Source: Mytilus galloprovincialis (taxonomy: Eukaryota > Mollusca > Bivalvia > Mytilida > Mytilidae). From it: a DNA stretch of 64,000 nt. The notes beneath the pieces were generated by a model. The model did no database searches. It worked only from the letters and a program-made list of their open reading frames with translations, and was not told where the DNA came from. A program made the translations under genes and the position numbers. The DNA is taken from assembly GCF_965363235.1 (NCBI RefSeq), contig NC_134844.1, positions 53,006,872-53,070,871 of the forward strand, given 5' to 3'. The stretch's first letter is position 1. Every line of letters starts with the position of its first letter. Below are positions 10,909-55,335 of the stretch, piece after piece.

Positions 10909-11955
10909 CGTAATCAAGTGTCACATCCTGAAATCTAAAAATTACTTGGAACAAGAGAAGTTAGTCTACAAATAAGGGAGCTAACTGTAACACTAAATCA
11001 AAACAACTTCCTAAAACATGAATTCAGTAGCCCGTACATTTTATTTTTGAAAAAAAATCATAAACAATTTTCATATTTCGTTTACATGATCAAAATTATG
11101 ATATTAAGAGAATAAATAACTACAGTGTTGAACAAAATCAAAATTTAGAGATATATTTGTTGTGAGTCTGAATTAGGTAGATTGTTTTTAGCACATCCAA
11201 TATTTTTCGGATCTACTCCATTCGATAACTGTCTGGTATTTACTTTACTCCATGCACACTTGCAAGAAAGCGTGGGTCTTTTGTTTTTTATATGTACTTT
11301 TTATAGGTGTTAATTAATTCAATGAATAACCACATCAATTAGTTACCTTCAGACTTAAAGCTTTAAGAGTTCTTTATGTTTCGTTTGTGAAAAAAATTGT
11401 AAACCACTTAATTTTCATGTGCAGACTTCGGTAACTGAAAAAAAAAAATAGACATTTCGGCACCCAGACAAATCGACACAAAAGTCAGAAGTTCTCAGAA
11501 GACGTTTCCTCATCACTTTTGGACATTTGTATATATAACAGCACCATACAAGAATTTACAGTTGGGGGAAAAGCCTGGATTCATCAGATCAGCACTAACA
11601 TGACTAAGCACAAACAAGAATATTCAAAACATACAAGCAAAGGACATATATATTTGCAGTTGCTGAATGTATTTTGAAACCAATCAGTGATATTGTTTGC
11701 CTTAAATTAATGGAGAATAAAGGCTTTTTCCCCTGGAGAAAAATCCTAAGTTGAAAAAAATGGCTTAAAATTATTCCCACGAAGACATCTTTTTTCCCAA
11801 ACAATGCAGTCTCAGTAGTAATTATAGTCGCCGTCAGCTGAAATTTGTAGCGGTTATCGGTAAAAATAATCTAAACTATCAATCGCGTTCACTCGAGATA
11901 TAGTTTTTCACATTCCATTCATAAATCGCAAAAAGAAAAACCACTACTGACCTAC

Positions 11956-12050
11956 CTTTTAAGTGATCACACTGTAATAATCCTGACCTTCACATTTTCC
12001 AGAATATTTTCCATTGTAATTCCGCCATCTTTGTTTCTATGAGGATCATT
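11956..12050 (-). other. TM7SF3: Predicted non-coding first exon of TM7SF3
   Basis: Minus strand. The exon would run from the YY1-like site to donor AAAAG|GTAGGT (donor GT at 11955-11954) and splice to the acceptor ending at 10928, just upstream of the ATG at 10908. The start boundary is approximate. Based on splice signals and position only. Confidence 0.5.
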
Positions 12051-12215
12051 TGTTTACATATATATGACATTCGTCACTGTACGCAGTTTCCTGAAATGTT
12101 CCTTTCATTGATGTGATAAGGTTTCCCGCGCTTTATGCAAATTTTATGAAATTGAACTCCACGGAAACACTTCCGGTCAAAACAATGGCTGATTCCACCA
12201 TTCAAAATCGTCTAT
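11999..12215. promoter_or_regulatory. Predicted bidirectional TATA-less promoter of TM7SF3 and MYG1
   Basis: The loop of the palindrome holds, facing left, CCGCCATCTT (the reverse complement of the YY1-like initiator AAGATGGCGG) at about 12022 and, facing right, CACTTCCGG (an ETS-type site) at 12168-12176 followed by AACAATGGC. Such motifs mark housekeeping start sites, and both neighbouring genes are housekeeping types. Transcription start sites are inferred, not seen. Confidence 0.55.
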
Positions 12216-12259
12216 GAAAAAGTGAAGGTCAGGATTATTACAGTGCGATCACTTAAAAG
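12185..12259 (+). other. MYG1: Predicted non-coding first exon of MYG1
   Basis: Ends at donor AAAAG|GTAGGT (GT at 12260-12261), the mirror image of the TM7SF3 donor. It would splice to acceptor TTTTTTAG ending at 13642. An upstream ATG at about 12184 opens an eleven-codon frame that stops before the donor. The frame leading into the MYG1 ATG is open through this exon but has no in-frame ATG. Start boundary approximate. Confidence 0.5.
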
Positions 12260-12391
12260 GTAGGTCAGTAGTGGTTTTTCTTTTTGAGATTTATGAATGG
12301 AATGTGAAAAACTATATCTCGAGTGAACGCGATTGATAGTTTAGATTATTTTTACTGATAACCGCTACGAATTTCAGCTGACGGCGACTAT

Positions 12392-13642
12392 ATATATAAT
12401 TGTGCATGAATACAAACTGAAAAACACTCATTTAAACCATTTTCATGCCTAAAATGACTATATGTGCAGATTTGAGGGTCTATTTATGTATCATTACTGA
12501 CAATATCTAAGGATCTTATTTCAAACAAGGGTTAAACTCTCGAAAGGGGGTCTGCAAATTGAAGTTCCAGTCAAATTCATCTTTCATTATTAATTTCCCA
12601 ATTTGATAAAAATGACGCATATTTTCCCAATAAAAAAGGGTAGAGGTAGTTTTGAAAAAAGCAAACAATATCACTGCCAATTCCAACAAAATAATATATT
12701 ATGTTTTCCCATCTTCTAAACATACTAAAATATCAACCAGTACACATCAAAGGGATTTGGGTACAAACAATATAGACTGACAAAAGTTATCTCGTGCAAT
12801 GCCAGAATAAACAGTCAGATCAAGCTCAGACATAAAGAAGCCGATTTTTGTTTTTGACAAACATGTATTTATTATAGAAATGGGTTTCAATTTTAGACTT
12901 ATCTAAGTCGGAAAATGACAGACTTGTTTACGTCTATTTATGTGGATGAAAAAACTTACTTGGTGGCCGAAGTACACCACCTATGACAGCAAAAACCTGT
13001 CTGAGAGTTCACAAGGACTTGATCAATCTATATTTAATTATCCTATTGAACATCCTTACTAAACACAGATGTTTTACCTCATTAAGTGTGGTTCCAGGTG
13101 GTTGCATTGCAAGGTTAATTAACATTATCTCCGATTTTTTAGACTCTTATTCGTATTTTTCTTTAGTAGACAAAGTATTGGCTTTCAATGTTGTCATTAT
13201 TTGATTTAGATGCATGACCGTTTTATAAATATTCGTGGGTCTTGAAGCTAACCAATTTTGATAACTTATCGACTTGTAGGAGTCGATATTTGCAATTTTC
13301 TTATTCTAGTCAATTATTTCTTGCTTAACAATATTTGACTTATTAAACTCATATTTTGTCTTGCATTAAAGGTAGACAAATCCTAAAACTTACAAATTTA
13401 GACCTCTATGAGTCAAAAGCAGATTCAGACTTATTTATGTCTGAGCTCTGACTAATAAAAGCATCAACAATGTTAGGGATCAAAAGTGCTCATAATTTGA
13501 TAGTCATAGTAATTATGCACATTGTACAATTGTTCATGTTGTTAAAAGTGGTCAAAATAACATTACCATTCATCATATTTAATTTTCACACAGCATTGAC
13601 ATGATTGACAGCTTAATTGGGTTTTTTTTTTTTCTTTTTTAG
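12392..13642. other. Intron between predicted MYG1 first exon and coding exon 1
   Basis: Apart from a weak inverted similarity (about 11675-11700 against 12660-12690) that may be an eroded extension of the promoter palindrome, I see no gene, tandem repeat or element ends here. Confidence 0.5.
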
Positions 13643-34646: not shown

Positions 34647-34693
34647 CACAGGCACTTGTCTCAGAATTTATTTTTTTTAGACAAGTGCTCGTG
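34647..34693. mobile_element. Miniature hairpin element CACAGGCACT, 47 bp
   Basis: Starts CACAGGCACTTGTCTCAGAA and ends AGACAAGTGCTCGTG. Arms pair over 15 bp with two mismatches around an A+T loop. GAAACTAG (34639-34646) and GCAACTAG (34694-34701) flank it, an 8-bp duplication with one difference. Confidence 0.75.
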
Positions 34694-34915: not shown

Positions 34916-35703
34916 AGGCACTGGCTACTGTTACATAGAAATATAACAATAATAAAATAATTATTGTTACTTTGGAGACTAATTACCGGAATGCAGGGTT
35001 GGGTAAGGAACTGATTAATTACGAATGTAACAATAATATTTGTGTCTACAGTTACATTGCGATATTGTTACATTAATGCACTGCATTATACGATGGGACT
35101 AGTAGTACATGTAGTATGTATTAAAATAAAACTTGAAAACTTTTAACATAAGTTTGATTATAACAATATTGCATGCATACATTTTTTTTAAATGTTTATA
35201 TACAATGACAGCATGTTAATTTTAGTCTGATGCATTTTTGGTGAAACCACAAACCAGTGATGCGGCGATTTGCAAATACAATTCCATTCTGCACTATCCC
35301 TTTTTGAAGTTTCGATGTCTACCATGTTTTAGGTGAAAACTATTTTCTTACTCTTGCGATGTTTATATTTTCGTCCAATATTTTTGTTGGAAGCTTGTGA
35401 GGTTGTTTCACGTTGTCTTTCAATATGATTTCATTGCCGTCTATTACTGACTTTATGTTCACCTCTGATTAAGGATAGGTGTGCAGTTACAAAATTTATG
35501 TAAATACATAAGTGAACGCTTTTCTCAGCCCAAGTTCTTAACGAACCATTGAACTATATTTTTCGCCTTTTGCACTACTAAACTGTATTTGTATCTTTAA
35601 GAATATTAAAACTAATACTTTAAACTATTCAAACACCATTTCGTGAATAAATCAATATAATATTAATATTGTTGTTATTATTATCTAGTATGTATCGAAG
35701 GAC

Positions 35704-35763
35704 CACAGGCACTCGTCTCAGAATTTAGGTATATAGGATTTTTTTCTGAGACGAATGCCTGTG
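35704..35763. mobile_element. Miniature hairpin element CACAGGCACT, 60 bp, perfect 8-bp duplication
   Basis: Left arm CACAGGCACTCGTCTCAGAA, right arm TTCTGAGACGAATGCCTGTG: 20-bp arms with one mismatch and a 20-base A+T loop. CGAAGGAC lies directly outside on both sides (35696-35703 and 35764-35771). The structure is fully readable: a complete transposed unit of only 60 bp. Confidence 0.9.
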
Positions 35764-35771
35764 CGAAGGAC

Positions 35772-37589: not shown

Positions 37590-37978
37590 ACTTATAGATT
37601 ATCATTGGTCATCGCAACGAGATTGATTTTCTCGCTTGATCATGAGTCGGTAAAAGTCGGTGAAAGTGAGAAAAGCAATAGAGTTGAGATGACCAATGAT
37701 ATTATCGCTATTTTGTGCATTTTTCCATTGATCTTTTTTGTGATAATTTTCATATCGTGCTACTCGCTTGAGATGGAAAACTATCGCTAAAAACTAAGGA
37801 GGCACGTGGCGTTGCTAACGAAACTGACATGAAATTGACAACGTCGTCATAGGTAAAAAAGCGATAAACAGATTATCATTGGTCATCTCAACTCGATTGC
37901 TTTTCTCGCTTTCAACGTCCCGGCTTAAGCGAGAAAAATCAATCTCGTTGAGATGATCAACAATAATCTATAAATATC
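37590..37978. mobile_element. Foldback element, family TATAGATTATCATTGG
   Basis: The left end TATAGATTATCATTGGTCAT is inverted relative to the right end (AGATGATCAACAATAATCTA, ending near 37977). Inside, a second inverted pair (about 37665-37705 and 37868-37910) carries the same AATCTCGTTGAGATGACC-like words. A reverse-oriented relative, split by an insertion, is at 54247-55205. Confidence 0.75.
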
Positions 37979-38434: not shown

Positions 38435-39766
38435 TCATGCAATCATCTGTTTTTTGTTGAGACATTTCGTCAATCGTCTGTTTTTTTGTTGTGACATTTC
38501 GTCAATCATCTGTATGCGTTGTTGTCGAACTATCTCGCCAATCTGTATTAAATTTCTCATATTTCGAATTTTAATATCACTCATCCGTGTGACACTTTGT
38601 AGAGCCATATTATTAGTCAGTATCCTGTTATGTCGCGCTATATGTATACCATTTGCTTCTGGTTGCCGATTCGCGACGAGTTCTGTGTCTGCGTTAATAT
38701 TTGTCTTAGAACAACACAATAGTTTTAATGCTTCTTTTCCGATAAGTTTCCCACTAAGAATATACAGAACGAAATTAAAGGTATTATTTGAATACATGAG
38801 AATATTTGTGATAGGCCACATTAAACCGAGTACAGCAAGGTCACGTGTGTCACCTTCCTCGTACCATTGGTTATATCCGATTACATACACACTGATAGGT
38901 ATTGATGACACTAGGAATACAGCGTTAAGCCCTACAAGCATTGTTGTCATGGACGATATTTTCGACTTTGATCCTGGTTTTCGTTGTCGATAGTCGTTTG
39001 TCGATTGTTGTGTTGCTCCAACCTTTTGCCTTGACTTGATGACTGTATATATGATAATTGTATTGCCAACAATGAGTAAAACAGAAGGTATAACGCAAAA
39101 TGAGACCAAATCCAACCAAGATCCAATGTTGTTGAAAAATAATTTATATTTTTTTGACAAATAAACACAATGCTGAATTGCCATTGTGCCGTTGTCGTAT
39201 TCAATTATATCACCTACACCGAACAATATGGGAAGTTTTGAACAAGACAAAACAACTGCTATAATAATAATTGTCGCAAGTGCTTTTTGTTTGGTGCATG
39301 AAAACTTCATTTTGTTAGGAAAACAAACCAATCCAGCACGTACTATAGTAACTGCTACTAACATCCAAGCAGAAAAGGAAAGAGCAAAATATAAAAGCCA
39401 CGTATGGAAACGGCAAAGTATATCTGATGATAGCCGTATATCTTTGTCAAATGTATATAATATCCAGTTTCTGAGAAGACCAGTATTTAGTGCCACTGTG
39501 TCTGAAATAGCCATCGCCGTTAGAAATACCGAAATAGTATACTGTCGAATAGATTTTCCATTTAAAACAATCACACACAAGATGTTTCCAAAATTTCCGA
39601 AAATTATCATGATCGGTGCTACGATTTTCCACAAATAAATTCCAGCAATATGTTCATCGTAAGTTGTGTAGTCTTCATACAACGAATCACTTTTACAGCC
39701 AACAGATCCATTTGCCTCGTTTTGATTGTCAGAGCATGTTGTATTTACCATAGATATAGTATCCAT
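38435..39766 (-). CDS. Rhodopsin-class G protein-coupled receptor, peptide-receptor-like, single exon
   Basis: An uninterrupted frame of 443 residues. An N-terminal tail with sequons NTT and NGS precedes seven hydrophobic segments at roughly 46-69, 78-98, 117-141, 162-184, 216-243, 273-298 and 308-337. Hallmarks: GN at 60-61 (TM1), D89 in LTAMAISDTV (TM2), C118 and C200 for the extracellular disulfide, P290 in FLVSSIPISVY (TM6). In place of E/DRY there is V142-R143-A144, and in place of NPxxY there is N331-F-V-L-Y335. The INFxLY-type TM7 is something I recall from the large lophotrochozoan expansions of FMRFamide/TRH-receptor-like orphans, so a neuropeptide or similar ligand is likely but unproven. 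The tail after residue 350 is long and basic, and its last 20 or so codons come from a duplicated word read in two frames. The predicted start is the first ATG after an in-frame stop. Confidence 0.92.
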   Translation of the reverse strand: MDTISMVNTTCSDNQNEANGSVGCKSDSLYEDYTTYDEHIAGIYLWKIVAPIMIIFGNFGNILCVIVLNGKSIRQYTISVFLTAMAISDTVALNTGLLRNWILYTFDKDIRLSSDILCRFHTWLLYFALSFSAWMLVAVTIVRAGLVCFPNKMKFSCTKQKALATIIIIAVVLSCSKLPILFGVGDIIEYDNGTMAIQHCVYLSKKYKLFFNNIGSWLDLVSFCVIPSVLLIVGNTIIIYTVIKSRQKVGATQQSTNDYRQRKPGSKSKISSMTTMLVGLNAVFLVSSIPISVYVIGYNQWYEEGDTRDLAVLGLMWPITNILMYSNNTFNFVLYILSGKLIGKEALKLLCCSKTNINADTELVANRQPEANGIHIARHNRILTNNMALQSVTRMSDIKIRNMRNLIQIGEIVRQQRIQMIDEMSQQKNRRLTKCLNKKQMIA

Positions 39767-40648: not shown

Positions 40649-40656
40649 TTTTTGAA

Positions 40657-41471
40657 CACAGGCACTAGTCTCAGAAAAAAAAAAATAATCCTATATACCT
40701 TAATATAACACAAGGTACTTAACTAAATTTTTTGAAAAATGTCACCCAGTCCCGAATTTCCGTTATTTTTCGATTTCTCGGTTTTCAAACCTACTTAAAC
40801 TTATTATGCCTTAAATCTAAATTGATATATCTACACAATGGTATATGACACAACTACCATTGTTGTCGGGATCATTAGTAGCAGGCCTCAGATGTCGGTC
40901 AACGTGATTTGTTTTTGCATACCGCTCCAGACTTGGCAACACAGAGTCCGCAGGTAATGATATACCGGTTTCTTATTGGTCAATCGTCTGTCTAAAATTA
41001 AATTTGGGAAATTTTGGTCAATTTATAACTCCTGACACATTTGACAGACCTCAAATAACACTTATTTGGGTTTGTATTTCATAATCTTTAAAGAATTTAC
41101 AATAAAAATAATAATTGATATTCAGAGGGAAGCTGACAGTTTTTTTTTTATTAATAATGTTTTATAATAAATCAATCACTGCGGACTCGGTGTTGCCAAG
41201 TCTGGAGCGGTATGCAAAAAAAAAAATCATATTGACCGACTTCCGAGGCCTGCTGCTAGTGATCCCGACAACAATGGTAGTCGTGTCATATACCATTGTG
41301 TAGATAAATCAATTTAGATTTACGGCATAATAAGTTTAAGTAGGTTTGAAAACCGAGAAATCGAAAAATAACGGAAATTCGGGACTGGGTGAAATTATTC
41401 AAAAAATTTAGTTAAGTACCTTGTGTTATATTAAGGTATAGGGAAAAAAAATTCTGAGACAAGTGCCTGTG
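40657..41471. mobile_element. Long hairpin element CACAGGCACT, 815 bp, perfect 8-bp duplication
   Basis: Outer ends CACAGGCACTAGTCTCAGAA and TTCTGAGACAAGTGCCTGTG. The arms (about 40657-40951 and 41181-41471) pair almost throughout, around a loop of about 230 bases. TTTTTGAA flanks both ends exactly (40649-40656, 41472-41479). Same family as the 60-bp and 47-bp elements. No transposase frame; non-autonomous. An 8-bp duplication fits hAT-type transposition. Confidence 0.9.
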
Positions 41472-41499
41472 TTTTTGAAGACCCATTCGACGCCTTTAA

Positions 41500-42588: not shown

Positions 42589-42797
<209 letters not shown>

Positions 42798-45118: not shown

Positions 45119-45176
45119 CACAGGCCCTTGTCTCATTGTAGCTTGATTTGTTTGTGCGAGAAGTAAAGTGCCTGTG
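45119..45176. mobile_element. Possible decayed hairpin element CACAGGCACT, 58 bp
   Basis: Ends CACAGGCCCTTGTCTC and GTAAAGTGCCTGTG are inverted with mismatches. No 8-bp duplication is visible. Likely a degenerate family member. Confidence 0.5.
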
Positions 45177-48400: not shown

Positions 48401-50310
48401 TATAAGATATCTTATATAGTTTATGAAATACCTCATATATAATTTATAAGATATCTTATATTTTAAACCATATGAAATATTTTATAAACTATGTGAGATA
48501 TCTTATAAAGTATATAAGATATCTTATAAAGTATATAAGATATCTTATAAAGTATATGACACATCTTATATACTAAATGAGATATCTTATATATTATATG
48601 AGATAACTTGAAGTTTGAATAAATATTACAAGGGCTGGCCATATTCATGACACCAGAAGTGCAAAAGATAAATATTTTGTTGATTATGAGTTGAACGGAA
48701 TAATCTCGATTGTACATGGAATTTATGGATCGAATATCATTTATTTATAATGCTGTATTGACACATGCACTTAAGAGGCGGATTTAGGGGGCGGGGGCCC
48801 GGGCACCCCCCCTTTTTGAGAATAAAATTTGGCTGATTATATAGGGAATCACTGAAGCGTGACGGGAGCGGGGCCCTCTTAGGCAGCCAGTGGGCCCCCA
48901 CTTATGAAAATTTTTAGATCCGCCACTGCACTTGTCTCAGAATTGTTTATCCTATATACCATAATATTAAGGTATATAGGGGGAAATCTGATACAAGTGC
49001 CTTTGCGTATATGGTTCAACATTTTCGTTTCACATGAAAATGCAGCACTCATTTAATAATATGTATATTCAGACTGAAAAAAATATTTTGAATAATTTAT
49101 TTTGAATTTATTTTGAATAATTTATCTTGAATAATTTATTTGAATAATTTATTTTGATTTACTTGATTGTGCTGTTCCTGATTACATTATATATTTTCTT
49201 TCAGATTGCAATTGTGCAAGTCTTTTTCAAAAAAGATATATTTTTTGTATCTTTGCAACATTTTGGATTTTACGTGCCGTAGTAGACGATGCCATTCTAG
49301 TAGCACTTAAGACACCAATATTTCAACAAGTGATACCAAGGAGTGAAAATAAAAGCAATTATTTATTACTGTGGTATGCACCACCATTTTGGGCTCGAAA
49401 CGATATGATTAAACCCCAGAAAGGATTGAAAAATTGTGTATTCAAAAATTGTGATATATCATTTGACAAGAGTTTGATAAATAAAAGCGATGTTTTGTTA
49501 TTTCATCAGGCTGATCTGAAAACATATCCGCCATTTAGAACTGAAAATCAAATGTGGATATACATGACGTTAGAGTCTCCAGTACACATGCGCAAGATCA
49601 ATAGAAACCAACCGTGGAATGATGCATTCAACTGGACGATGAGCTATCGAAAAGATTCGGACATATTTACCCCCTATGCAAAATTGTCTAAAAGATTAAC
49701 GCCTCTAAAAAAGAATTACACAGATATCTTTAAAAAGAAATCAAAGGATGTGGCTTGGATAGTTAGTAATTGTCTTGCACATTCAAAAAGGATGAGGTAC
49801 GTGCAAATGATGAAGAAATATATCAATGTAGACATATTTGGAAACTGTGGAAAACTGTGCACCAGAACGGGCGATAACTGCATGAAAGAATTAAGTAGAC
49901 ACTATAAATTCTATCTTTCATTCGAAAATTCTTTGTGTGAAGATTATGTAACAGAAAAGGCATTCAAATTGTACAAGGACGATTTCAATATAGTTCCTGT
50001 AATAAGGGGAGCTCCTAATATTAAGGATATTTTACCAAATGATACCTTTATTTCTACCTCGGATTTTAATTCTACAAAAGTATTAGCTCTTTATCTCAGG
50101 GATGTAGCACTGAATAAAACCAAGTATTTATCCTATCTTCAAGCTAAAGACAGGTATACGACCTATTCGATCCTCGACTCGCATGTTATTGAAGAGGGAG
50201 CATGCGCATTGTGTAAATTATTGAATAGTGATAACAAAAGAAAAGGTACTGTAAATGTAACCCAATGGGCGTTGAAGAAAAAATGCTTCAGTCCTGTTGA
50301 TATAACTTAA
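45455..50310 (+). CDS. Alpha-1,3-fucosyltransferase (GT10), two coding exons
   Basis: Join 45455-45458 and 49205-50310 gives 369 residues plus stop. A type II Golgi membrane enzyme that transfers fucose from GDP-fucose to an N-acetylglucosamine-containing glycan. Features: short cytosolic tail, signal anchor at about residues 13-35, then the catalytic domain with WYAPPFW (58-64), an acceptor-side block IYMTLESP, NWTMSYRKDSDIFTPY (144-159), VAWIVSNC, VDIFGNCG, and the GDP-fucose motif YKFYLSFENSLCEDYVTEK (235-253). Several N-glycosylation sequons are present. All family motifs are there, so the enzyme is probably active. Length is normal for GT10. Acceptor specificity (core alpha-1,3 or Lewis type) cannot be told. 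The first exon is inferred from phase and splice signal. AATAAA words lie 20 and 27 bases after the stop. The intron holds a decayed MITE, a minisatellite and AT-rich arrays. Confidence 0.9.
45845..46167. mobile_element. Left end of a GGGAGCTACC PIF/Harbinger-like MITE
   Basis: TAA|GGGAGCTACCATTTGATTTT followed by T, G and AAAAAAGGCAGG-type runs as in the 18459 element, but no matching right end is found, so it is truncated or decayed. It lies in the fucosyltransferase intron. Confidence 0.7.
46168..47020. other. Fucosyltransferase intron, one short palindrome
   Basis: The inverted pair GGATTATCGGATTTATCCAA and TTGGATAAATCCGATAATCC (about 46871-46926) forms a 20-bp perfect hairpin. Otherwise nothing recognised. 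Confidence 0.65.
47070..47190. repeat. Fragment related to the 57196 MITE
   Basis: TTTTTTCTGGACAAATTTTT and TTCGCCTTCGGCGAAAAACA match, in reverse, the right half of the 57196-57477 element. No flanking duplication. Confidence 0.65.
47205..47475. repeat. Minisatellite, about 60-bp unit, five copies
   Basis: GGGACTGAT recurs at 47222, 47280, 47343 and 47401, and (as AGACTGATT) near 47458. Each unit contains CCTTTTATTCGCTGGGAAAA and TAATTGTATGGCAT. Decays at the right end. Confidence 0.85.
47860..48055 (+). repeat. Dispersed mussel-type repeat, 5' part
   Basis: Begins AGATGTGGTATGATTGCCAA and matches the first 180 or so bases of 44543-44960. Confidence 0.8.
48338..48612. repeat. Array of the palindrome TATAAGATATCTTATA
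   Basis: About ten copies of AAGATATCTTATA or close variants (AAATACCTCATA, GAGATATCTTATA) at 27-36 bp spacing. Each copy is self-complementary. Confidence 0.85.
48775..48924 (-). repeat. GGCGGATCC-type dispersed repeat, reverse orientation
   Basis: GGGGGCGGGGGCCCGGGC at the start and AGATCCGCCACTG at the end, with GGAATCACTGAAGCGTGAC between, matching inverted 54012-54176. Confidence 0.75.
48925..49014. mobile_element. Hairpin element of the CACAGGCACT family, about 88 bp, decayed ends
   Basis: GCACTTGTCTCAGAATTG and CAAGTGCC bound a strong hairpin CCTATATACC...GGTATATAGG. The outermost bases are altered, and no duplication is visible. It abuts the preceding repeat. Confidence 0.6.
49205..50310 (+). 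CDS. Fucosyltransferase main exon
   Basis: Acceptor CTTTCAG ends at 49204. The open frame extends upstream of the GTG at 49330 through the membrane anchor (YIFCIFATFWILRAVV), so 49330 is not the start. All catalytic motifs lie in this one exon. Confidence 0.95.
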
Positions 50311-55043: not shown

Positions 55044-55335
55044 TATTTACCCGGCTATGACGACGTTGTCAATTTCATGTCAATTTTATTAGCAACACCA
55101 TGTGCCTCCTTAGTTTCTAGCGATAATTTCCCATCTGAAGCGAGAAGCATGATATGAAAAATTATCACAAAAAAGATCAAAGGAAAAATGCTCAAAATAG
55201 CGATAATATATAGTTGTTCTTTTGCTCTTGTCCATGTTGTCCTGAATAGATCCTGGGACTAATATACTTAGTCCTAGGTAGATCCGAGTACAATTTGGTA
55301 CAATGCCATGACTTTTAACGGCCATATCATATTTG

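What the first reader, a model, noticed from the sequence alone, without database searches (positions are those of the whole stretch)
35696..35771. A complete transposed hairpin of only 60 bp with perfect 8-bp target duplications
Seen directly: 20-bp arms (one mismatch), a 20-base loop, and CGAAGGAC on both sides. That is the footprint of cut-and-paste transposition, yet the unit is 60 bp, near the lower limit for anything a transposase could mobilise. Eight-base duplications are typical of hAT-type (also P and Merlin) transposases. It implies that two inverted 20-bp sites are enough for some transposase active in this genome.
Basis: partly seen in the sequence, partly recalled or inferred. 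Interest (0 to 1): 0.85.

Follow-up and report, generated by a model that had tools for sequence, protein, structure and literature searches.

The report
Tiny hairpin transposons in mussel genome
The 60-base hairpin is a real insertion, and among the relatives sampled in the same mussel genome most are shorter than about 120 bases (one is 45), many flanked by their own copied 8 bases, which makes this a good place to ask how small a movable piece of DNA can be.

Summary
Confirmed: 60-bp unit 35704-35763, arms matching 19 of 20, CGAAGGAC on both sides. The same ends recur in the window on an 815-bp foldback element (TTTTTGAA on both sides) and a 47-bp unit (7 of 8). The host assembly (Mytilus) holds 1,938 exact copies of the 19-base end; the reversed control has 0. 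Among the 100 ends listed, 16 of 23 convergent pairs span 115 bp or less, the smallest 45 bp. Of 53 sampled units up to 180 bp, 38 have flanks matching at 7 or 8 of 8, 29 exactly; shifted controls reach 7 in 3 of 7,327. Paralogous empty sites were seen for units of 47, 58, 66, 87, 99 and 105 bp, not for the 60-bp copy. This is a MITE-like family made of centre-deletion derivatives of longer inverted repeats. Whether this copy inserted as 60 bp or shrank afterwards is not shown: most joints are unique, but one 58-60-bp joint recurs at three target sites. No transposase partner was found; the superfamily stays open.

The parts
35696..35703 (.). left 8-bp target duplication CGAAGGAC
35704..35723 (+). 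left terminal inverted repeat CACAGGCACTCGTCTCAGAA
35724..35743 (.). middle; carries AGGTATATAGGA, subterminal sequence of one family arm, joined to the end of the other arm
35744..35763 (-). right terminal inverted repeat CACAGGCATTCGTCTCAGAA (as read on the - strand)
35764..35771 (.). right 8-bp target duplication CGAAGGAC
40657..41471 (.). 815-bp foldback relative; arms align over 273 columns at 93%; TTTTTGAA on both sides (40649-40656, 41472-41479)
34647..34693 (.). 47-bp relative; flanks GAAACTAG / GCAACTAG (7 of 8); paralogous empty sites (76-79%) in other loci
48762..49005 (.). decayed relative (244 bp) with another element, about 48773-48928, inserted in its left end; flanks match only 4 of 8
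45119..45176 (.). doubtful 58-bp relative (ends alike for about 10 bases; flanks 5 of 8; 33 of 200 shuffles fold as well)
37701..37840 (-). paralogous empty site (89%) for a 58-bp unit elsewhere in the genome (L087)
55067..55207 (+). second paralogous empty site (89%) for the same 58-bp unit

Best explanation
The hairpin is one copy of a non-autonomous, MITE-like, foldback-derived family with ends CACAGGCACTYGTCTCAGAA. Shown: insertions that duplicate exactly 8 bp, with relatives across the genome and empty sites for several of them. Inferred: a transposase supplied elsewhere recognises the short ends and moves the units by cut and paste. The units are inverted repeats that repeatedly lose their centres (breakage of the palindrome, or incomplete gap repair after excision), giving sizes from about 0.8-1 kb through about 100 bp down to 45 bp or less. 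Some of the shortest forms, about 58-60 bp, probably moved again at that size, because one joint recurs at three target sites. For the copy in the window the order of shrinking and insertion is open.
For: 19 of 20 arm match and exact 8-bp duplication. Same ends on an 815-bp element and a 47-bp unit in the window. 1,938 exact ends in 1.385 Gb, reversed control 0. Flanks matching at 7 or 8 of 8 in 26 of 37 units against 3 of 7,327 shifted controls; exact abutting repeats of length 8 in 18 of 37, of length 6, 7, 9 or 10 in 0. 38 of 53 in the larger set with duplicates removed. Units of 37, 45, 47, 54, 58, 60, 60 and 61 bp with flanks at 7 or 8 of 8. Paralogous empty sites for units of 47, 58, 66, 87, 99 and 105 bp. 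Joint CAGAAAAGGTATATAGGA at target sites TCACAGAT, TGCGAGTA and ACAAGTAT. 16 of 23 listed end pairs span 115 bp or less.
Against: 15 of 53 units have flanks matching at 6 or fewer of 8. Most joints are unique, as expected if many units shrank where they sit. The recurring joint lies at an A run and could form more than once; its three sites fall into two subtypes at position 11. The exact joint of the 60-bp copy was found nowhere else in the fetched DNA, and no empty site for it was found there. No coding partner: of the two longest listed pairs, 4,795 bp (flanks 8 of 8) is filled with other repeats and 2,868 bp (flanks 2 of 8 in register) is an 851-bp foldback copy plus a separate end. The 53 units are partly chosen by likeness to the 60-bp unit, and the 23 pairs require two exact ends, which favours young copies.
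Confidence: 0.82

Rival explanations
1. Shrinkage in place: a longer foldback element inserted at CGAAGGAC and later lost its centre, leaving a 60-bp remnant with intact duplications. This 60-bp unit never moved.
For: Sampled small units show a nested series of mostly different joints. Long relatives with the same ends exist. In Drosophila, P-element excision repaired by end joining can leave both 8-bp duplications, up to 17 bases of each end and a short insertion (PMC5466332, section 9 with Tables 1 and 2 read), a similar layout.
Against: The same 58-60-bp joint occurs at three target sites. In the table all 53 units keep more than 17 bases on at least one side, so they are not simple 17-base scars. 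In the listed pairs small forms outnumber long ones.
Confidence: 0.42
2. Movement at 60 bp: a transposase mobilised the 60-bp hairpin itself.
For: Units of 51-62 bp have flanks at 7 or 8 of 8 in 5 of 6 cases, units up to 50 bp in 3 of 3. The joint CAGAAAAGGTATATAGGAA is shared by L085 and L087 at different exact target sites, and L087 has two paralogous empty sites. Very small mobile units are known elsewhere (introner examples of 67, 70 and 77 bp by the coordinates listed in PMC9860276, passages read).
Against: The window copy's exact joint is unique in the fetched DNA. Recurrent deletion at an A run can mimic shared descent.
Confidence: 0.5
3. Chance hairpin, or part of a larger duplicated segment.
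For: Some copies do lie in larger repeats: L080, L081, L082 and L084 share flanks at about 98%, L108 and L111 at 98%.
Against: The window copy's flanks match none of the units compared; shifted controls and resampled windows do not give such structures.
Confidence: 0.01

Closest known systems
P-element MITEs of Anopheles gambiae (PMC1562414, passages read) and the P superfamily
   Same: 8-bp duplications; internally deleted, non-autonomous copies; 5'-CA termini as in Drosophila P (PMC5466332) and zebrafish Pdre2 (PMC10983969, passages read)
   Different: The Anopheles P-MITEs carry numbers from 205 to 2450 in their names, and Drosophila deleted P elements are 0.5-2.8 kb (PMC7776569, passages read); here most sampled units are under 120 bp. 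No P transposase was linked to these ends.
Galileo, foldback-like P-superfamily element of Drosophila (PMC4168063, passages read)
   Same: long inverted arms, foldback structure
   Different: Galileo duplications are mostly 7 bp with consensus GTATTAC in D. willistoni; here exactly 8 bp with only a weak preference
hAT MITEs such as Mar (PMC3517528, passages read)
   Same: internal-deletion origin is proposed for Mar; 8-bp duplications are typical of hAT (recalled)
   Different: ends here start CACAGG, not the CAG/TAG start that I recall for hAT; motif nTnnnnAn in 11 of 47 sites
Introners with short inverted repeats (PMC9860276, passages read; PMC7789003, passages read)
   Same: tiny units (67, 70 and 77 bp in three examples, by listed coordinates) with target duplications and/or inverted repeats; one Aureococcus example is described with an 8-bp duplication
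   Different: introners act as introns; nothing here links these units to splicing (not tested)
Paramecium IESs (PMC3408717, passages read)
   Same: show that a domesticated transposase can cut at both ends of segments as short as 26-30 bp
   Different: removed in development, each described as single copy; not a family of new insertions

Membership tests
MITE | short, without coding capacity, with terminal inverted repeats | tested here: met
MITE | target-site duplication of fixed length | tested here: met
   8 bp; 38 of 53 units at 7 or 8 of 8; exact abutting repeats only at length 8
MITE | high copy number | tested here: met
   1,938 exact ends
MITE | length homogeneity (called typical in PMC6004678, passages read; not strictly defining, hence the wording MITE-like) | tested here: not met
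   37 to 888 bp in the fetched copies, nested centre deletions
MITE | autonomous partner with the same ends | tested here: inconclusive
   two long pairs and six 10-kb stretches beside single ends gave no transposase by reading frames and six frames put to Pfam; only 100 of 1,938 ends were listed
hAT superfamily | 8-bp duplication | tested here: met
hAT superfamily | target motif nTnnnnAn (recalled) | tested here: inconclusive
   3 of 24 against 2.4 expected; 11 of 47 against 4.8
hAT superfamily | hAT transposase on an element with these ends | not tested
   no coding element with these ends was found; no genome-wide family search was run
P superfamily | 8-bp duplication and 5'-CA termini | tested here: met
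   compared
P superfamily | THAP-domain transposase on an element with these ends | not tested
   no coding element with these ends was found; no genome-wide family search was run
Foldback element | long inverted arms reaching close to the termini | tested here: met
   815-bp copy, arms 93% over 273 columns plus the terminal 20-base ends
Merlin superfamily | 8-9-bp duplication and its own transposase (recalled) | not tested
   no transposase found

The most novel reading that the evidence does not exclude
In this mussel a transposase mobilises hairpins of 60 bp or less, perhaps down to 45 bp or below, needing only about 14-16 bases of terminal repeat. Palindrome formation and centre loss then continually create new, ever shorter mobile units, so that the family evolves towards the physical minimum for cut-and-paste transposition.
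Probability: 0.45. Interest if true: 0.7.

Novelty: new variant of a known kind. Interest (0 to 1): 0.52.

Why it matters
The lower size limit of a DNA transposon is rarely testable in an animal. Here natural units of 45-120 bp with clean duplications and empty sites give a graded series for asking what a transposase needs, how inverted repeats shrink, and whether shrinking precedes or follows insertion.

Tried and rejected
Exact end pattern in viral contigs: 0. In bacterial genome contigs: 2 matches, in contigs titled as bacterial MAGs (GC 63% and 52%) and without a second end, taken as chance. A shorter end pattern gave 60 viral contigs and a subterminal pattern 9; no paired ends were found in these 71 loci. 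A common repeat of this window and an arm sequence of the 815-bp element: 0 viral contigs each. A text search for six forms of the end sequence in the paper library: 0 papers, which covers open-licence papers only. The other paper searches were made; the one for the smallest MITE gave nothing on point.

The idea that W60 and W47 are simple P-type 17-base scars was rejected because more bases remain on at least one side. The two longest listed pairs as autonomous elements were rejected. A long frame in L121 is a TIR/LRR immune-type protein, not a transposase.

Of the 13, L081, L082, L084 and L111 are copies within larger repeats; L126, L130, L132, L135, L143, L149 and L151 are the same place listed from its other end; L152 and L153 were judged duplicates from reverse-complement target sites and matching units only, flanks not compared. 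The 104-bp pair in L110 is probably a wrong pairing but was kept.

Full report
Observation. The unit at 35704-35763 is as described: arms of 20 bases matching 19 of 20, a 20-base middle, and CGAAGGAC on both sides. Within the window the 20-base end (up to 3 mismatches) occurs 5 times, against 0 in 100 shuffles. Two are the ends of the unit itself. Two are the ends of an 815-bp foldback element (40657-41471) flanked by TTTTTGAA on both sides, whose arms align over 273 columns at 93%. One is the left end of a 47-bp unit (34647-34693) flanked by GAAACTAG and GCAACTAG. Two more loci are weaker: a decayed unit at 48762-49005 that carries another insertion, and a doubtful 58-bp unit at 45119-45176. 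A blind scan for 8-bp repeats with inverted ends gave 12 hits; apart from those with palindromic 8-mers only the 60-bp and 815-bp units remain, and 15 resampled windows gave 0.

Host. A GPCR gene of the window is 99% identical over 97% of its length to a Mytilus galloprovincialis protein. The host assembly has 1,384,861,812 bases in 331 contigs, and the window is C7:53006872-53070871.

Family. The pattern CACAGGCAYTNGTCTCAGA has 931 forward and 1,007 reverse exact matches; the backwards control has 0 and 0. The tool listed the first 100, all on C1 up to 66 Mb. Among them 23 adjacent convergent pairs under 6 kb measure 45, 65, 75, 75, 80, 81, 83, 85, 87, 89, 89, 99, 100, 105, 110, 115, 286, 359, 792, 862, 1075, 2868 and 4795 bp, so 16 of 23 are 115 bp or less. 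These pairs need two exact ends, which favours young copies. Of the first 30 listed ends, 26 have a partner within 1.9 kb when mismatches are allowed. In this sample the small form is the common one.

Target duplications. In 37 paired units (34 from the loci plus three of the window; copies within larger repeats included) the 8 flanking bases match at 8 of 8 in 18 and at 7 of 8 in 8. Shifted positions at the same spacing in the same loci reach 7 in 3 of 7,327 trials and never 8. Exact repeats of length 6, 7, 9 or 10 abutting the ends: 0. In the 53 units of 180 bp or less left after dropping 13 loci as duplicates or double listings, 38 match at 7 or 8 and 29 exactly; by size, 3 of 3 up to 50 bp, 5 of 6 at 51-62 bp, 11 of 18 at 63-80 bp, 17 of 24 at 81-120 bp and 2 of 2 above. 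The other 15 match at 6 or fewer. The smallest exact case is 45 bp with TAGAGGGT on both sides (L160); a 37-bp unit (L096) has 7 of 8.

Larger repeats. L080, L081, L082 and L084 are one insertion carried in a larger repeat (about 98% flanks), as are L108 and L111 (98%). The flanks of the window's 60-bp unit match none of the units compared there (the loci fetched later were not in that comparison).

Empty sites. Joining the flanks of 77 listed units with one copy of the target and comparing with the fetched DNA gave matches across the joint for the 58-bp unit L087 (two places in this window, 89% each), the 66-bp unit L083 (82% and 79%), the 87-bp unit L164 (best 89%), the 99-bp unit L095 (88% over 43 bases) and the window's 47-bp unit (four loci at 76-79%, 4 bases fewer at the site). 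The 105-bp unit L168:458-562 has empty counterparts in five other long family elements (82-90%), one of which (L125/L126) lacks 7 bases at the site. Weaker, gapped matches (for example L129, L150) are not counted. No match across the joint was seen for the 60-bp or the 815-bp unit. Part of the output, among L131 and L132, was cut. An empty site shows that something inserted, not how long it was on arrival.

How it gets small. Aligned to arm consensus strings, the units form a nested series of centre deletions: each keeps a prefix of one arm and a prefix of the other, with joints at different places. The 60-bp unit keeps about 23 bases of one side and 37 of the other. Most joints are unique. 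One, CAGAAAAGGTATATAGGA, occurs at three unrelated target sites: TCACAGAT (L085, 60 bp), TGCGAGTA (L087, 58 bp) and the ACAAGTAT repeat group (L081 and L084, 60 bp). L085 and L087 agree further after the joint and at position 11; the third group does not. This favours movement of the 58-60-bp form, but a recurring deletion at an A run is not excluded. The exact joint of the window copy occurs nowhere else in the fetched DNA. The base at position 11 agrees between the two arms (T/T or C/C) in 48 of 53 units, and arms of one unit are more alike than arms of different units (66 of 5,000 permutations reach the observed value, 27 units). So units come as subtypes, or their arms are made alike.

An unexpected case. 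L168:458-562 is a 105-bp perfect palindrome (0 mismatches in 52) with CAATACAC on both sides. It shares 15 of its first 16 bases with the family and has an unrelated interior. It suggests that about 14-16 end bases are enough for recognition, which the 60-bp copy alone does not show.

Mechanism and filing. Exactly 8-bp duplications and short inverted ends mean cut-and-paste insertion by a transposase supplied elsewhere (established knowledge of TIR transposons). In P elements the enzyme cuts 17 bases inside the end, and end-joining repair can leave duplications, end remnants and a short insertion (PMC5466332, section 9 read, other passages; PMC7776569, passages read). That is a known route by which remnants with intact duplications arise in place, and shrinkage in place is the main rival for any single small copy. 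The superfamily is open: 8 bp fits hAT, P, Merlin and others (recalled). The symmetrised target sites favour T at position 2 (0.48) and G at position 1 (0.30) (47 sites), which fits both hAT nTnnnnAn and P GT....AC (both recalled). No coding element with these ends was found in two long pairs and six 10-kb stretches beside single ends; six reading frames put to Pfam gave no transposase, and shorter frames were not scanned.

Verdict. A real, high-copy, unusually small and size-variable MITE-like family, and the core of the finding is right. The strongest claim, transposition at 60 bp or less, is plausible and now testable but not proven.

Changed on checking: the list of empty sites, the naming (MITE-like, and novelty moved from member to variant because length homogeneity is not met), and a Pfam scan of long frames added.

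Noticed in passing
L168:458-562 (host C1, about 21.257 Mb): 105-bp perfect palindrome with exact 8-bp duplication CAATACAC, family-like end of about 16 bases and an unrelated interior, inserted inside a long family element.
   Followed up: partly
L096:490-526: 37-bp unit with family ends and 7 of 8 flank match, in the same 2-kb stretch as a 70-bp unit with an exact duplication.
   Followed up: partly
48773-48928: Another short element with ends AAGAGGCGG / CAGTGGCGG (hAT-like by recall) sits in the left end of a family copy; its own duplication is not intact.
   Followed up: partly
11804-12411: Separate 608-bp inverted repeat (196-base arms, 93%) whose ends do not look like this family.
   Followed up: no
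L123:83-147: Two family ends in the same orientation 45 bases apart, a nested or tandem start.
   Followed up: no
49144-50307 and 38438-39766: A fucosyltransferase-like frame (Pfam Glyco_transf_10) and a GPCR frame on the other strand.
   Followed up: partly
42590-42793: A pure CA repeat of 102 units.
   Followed up: no
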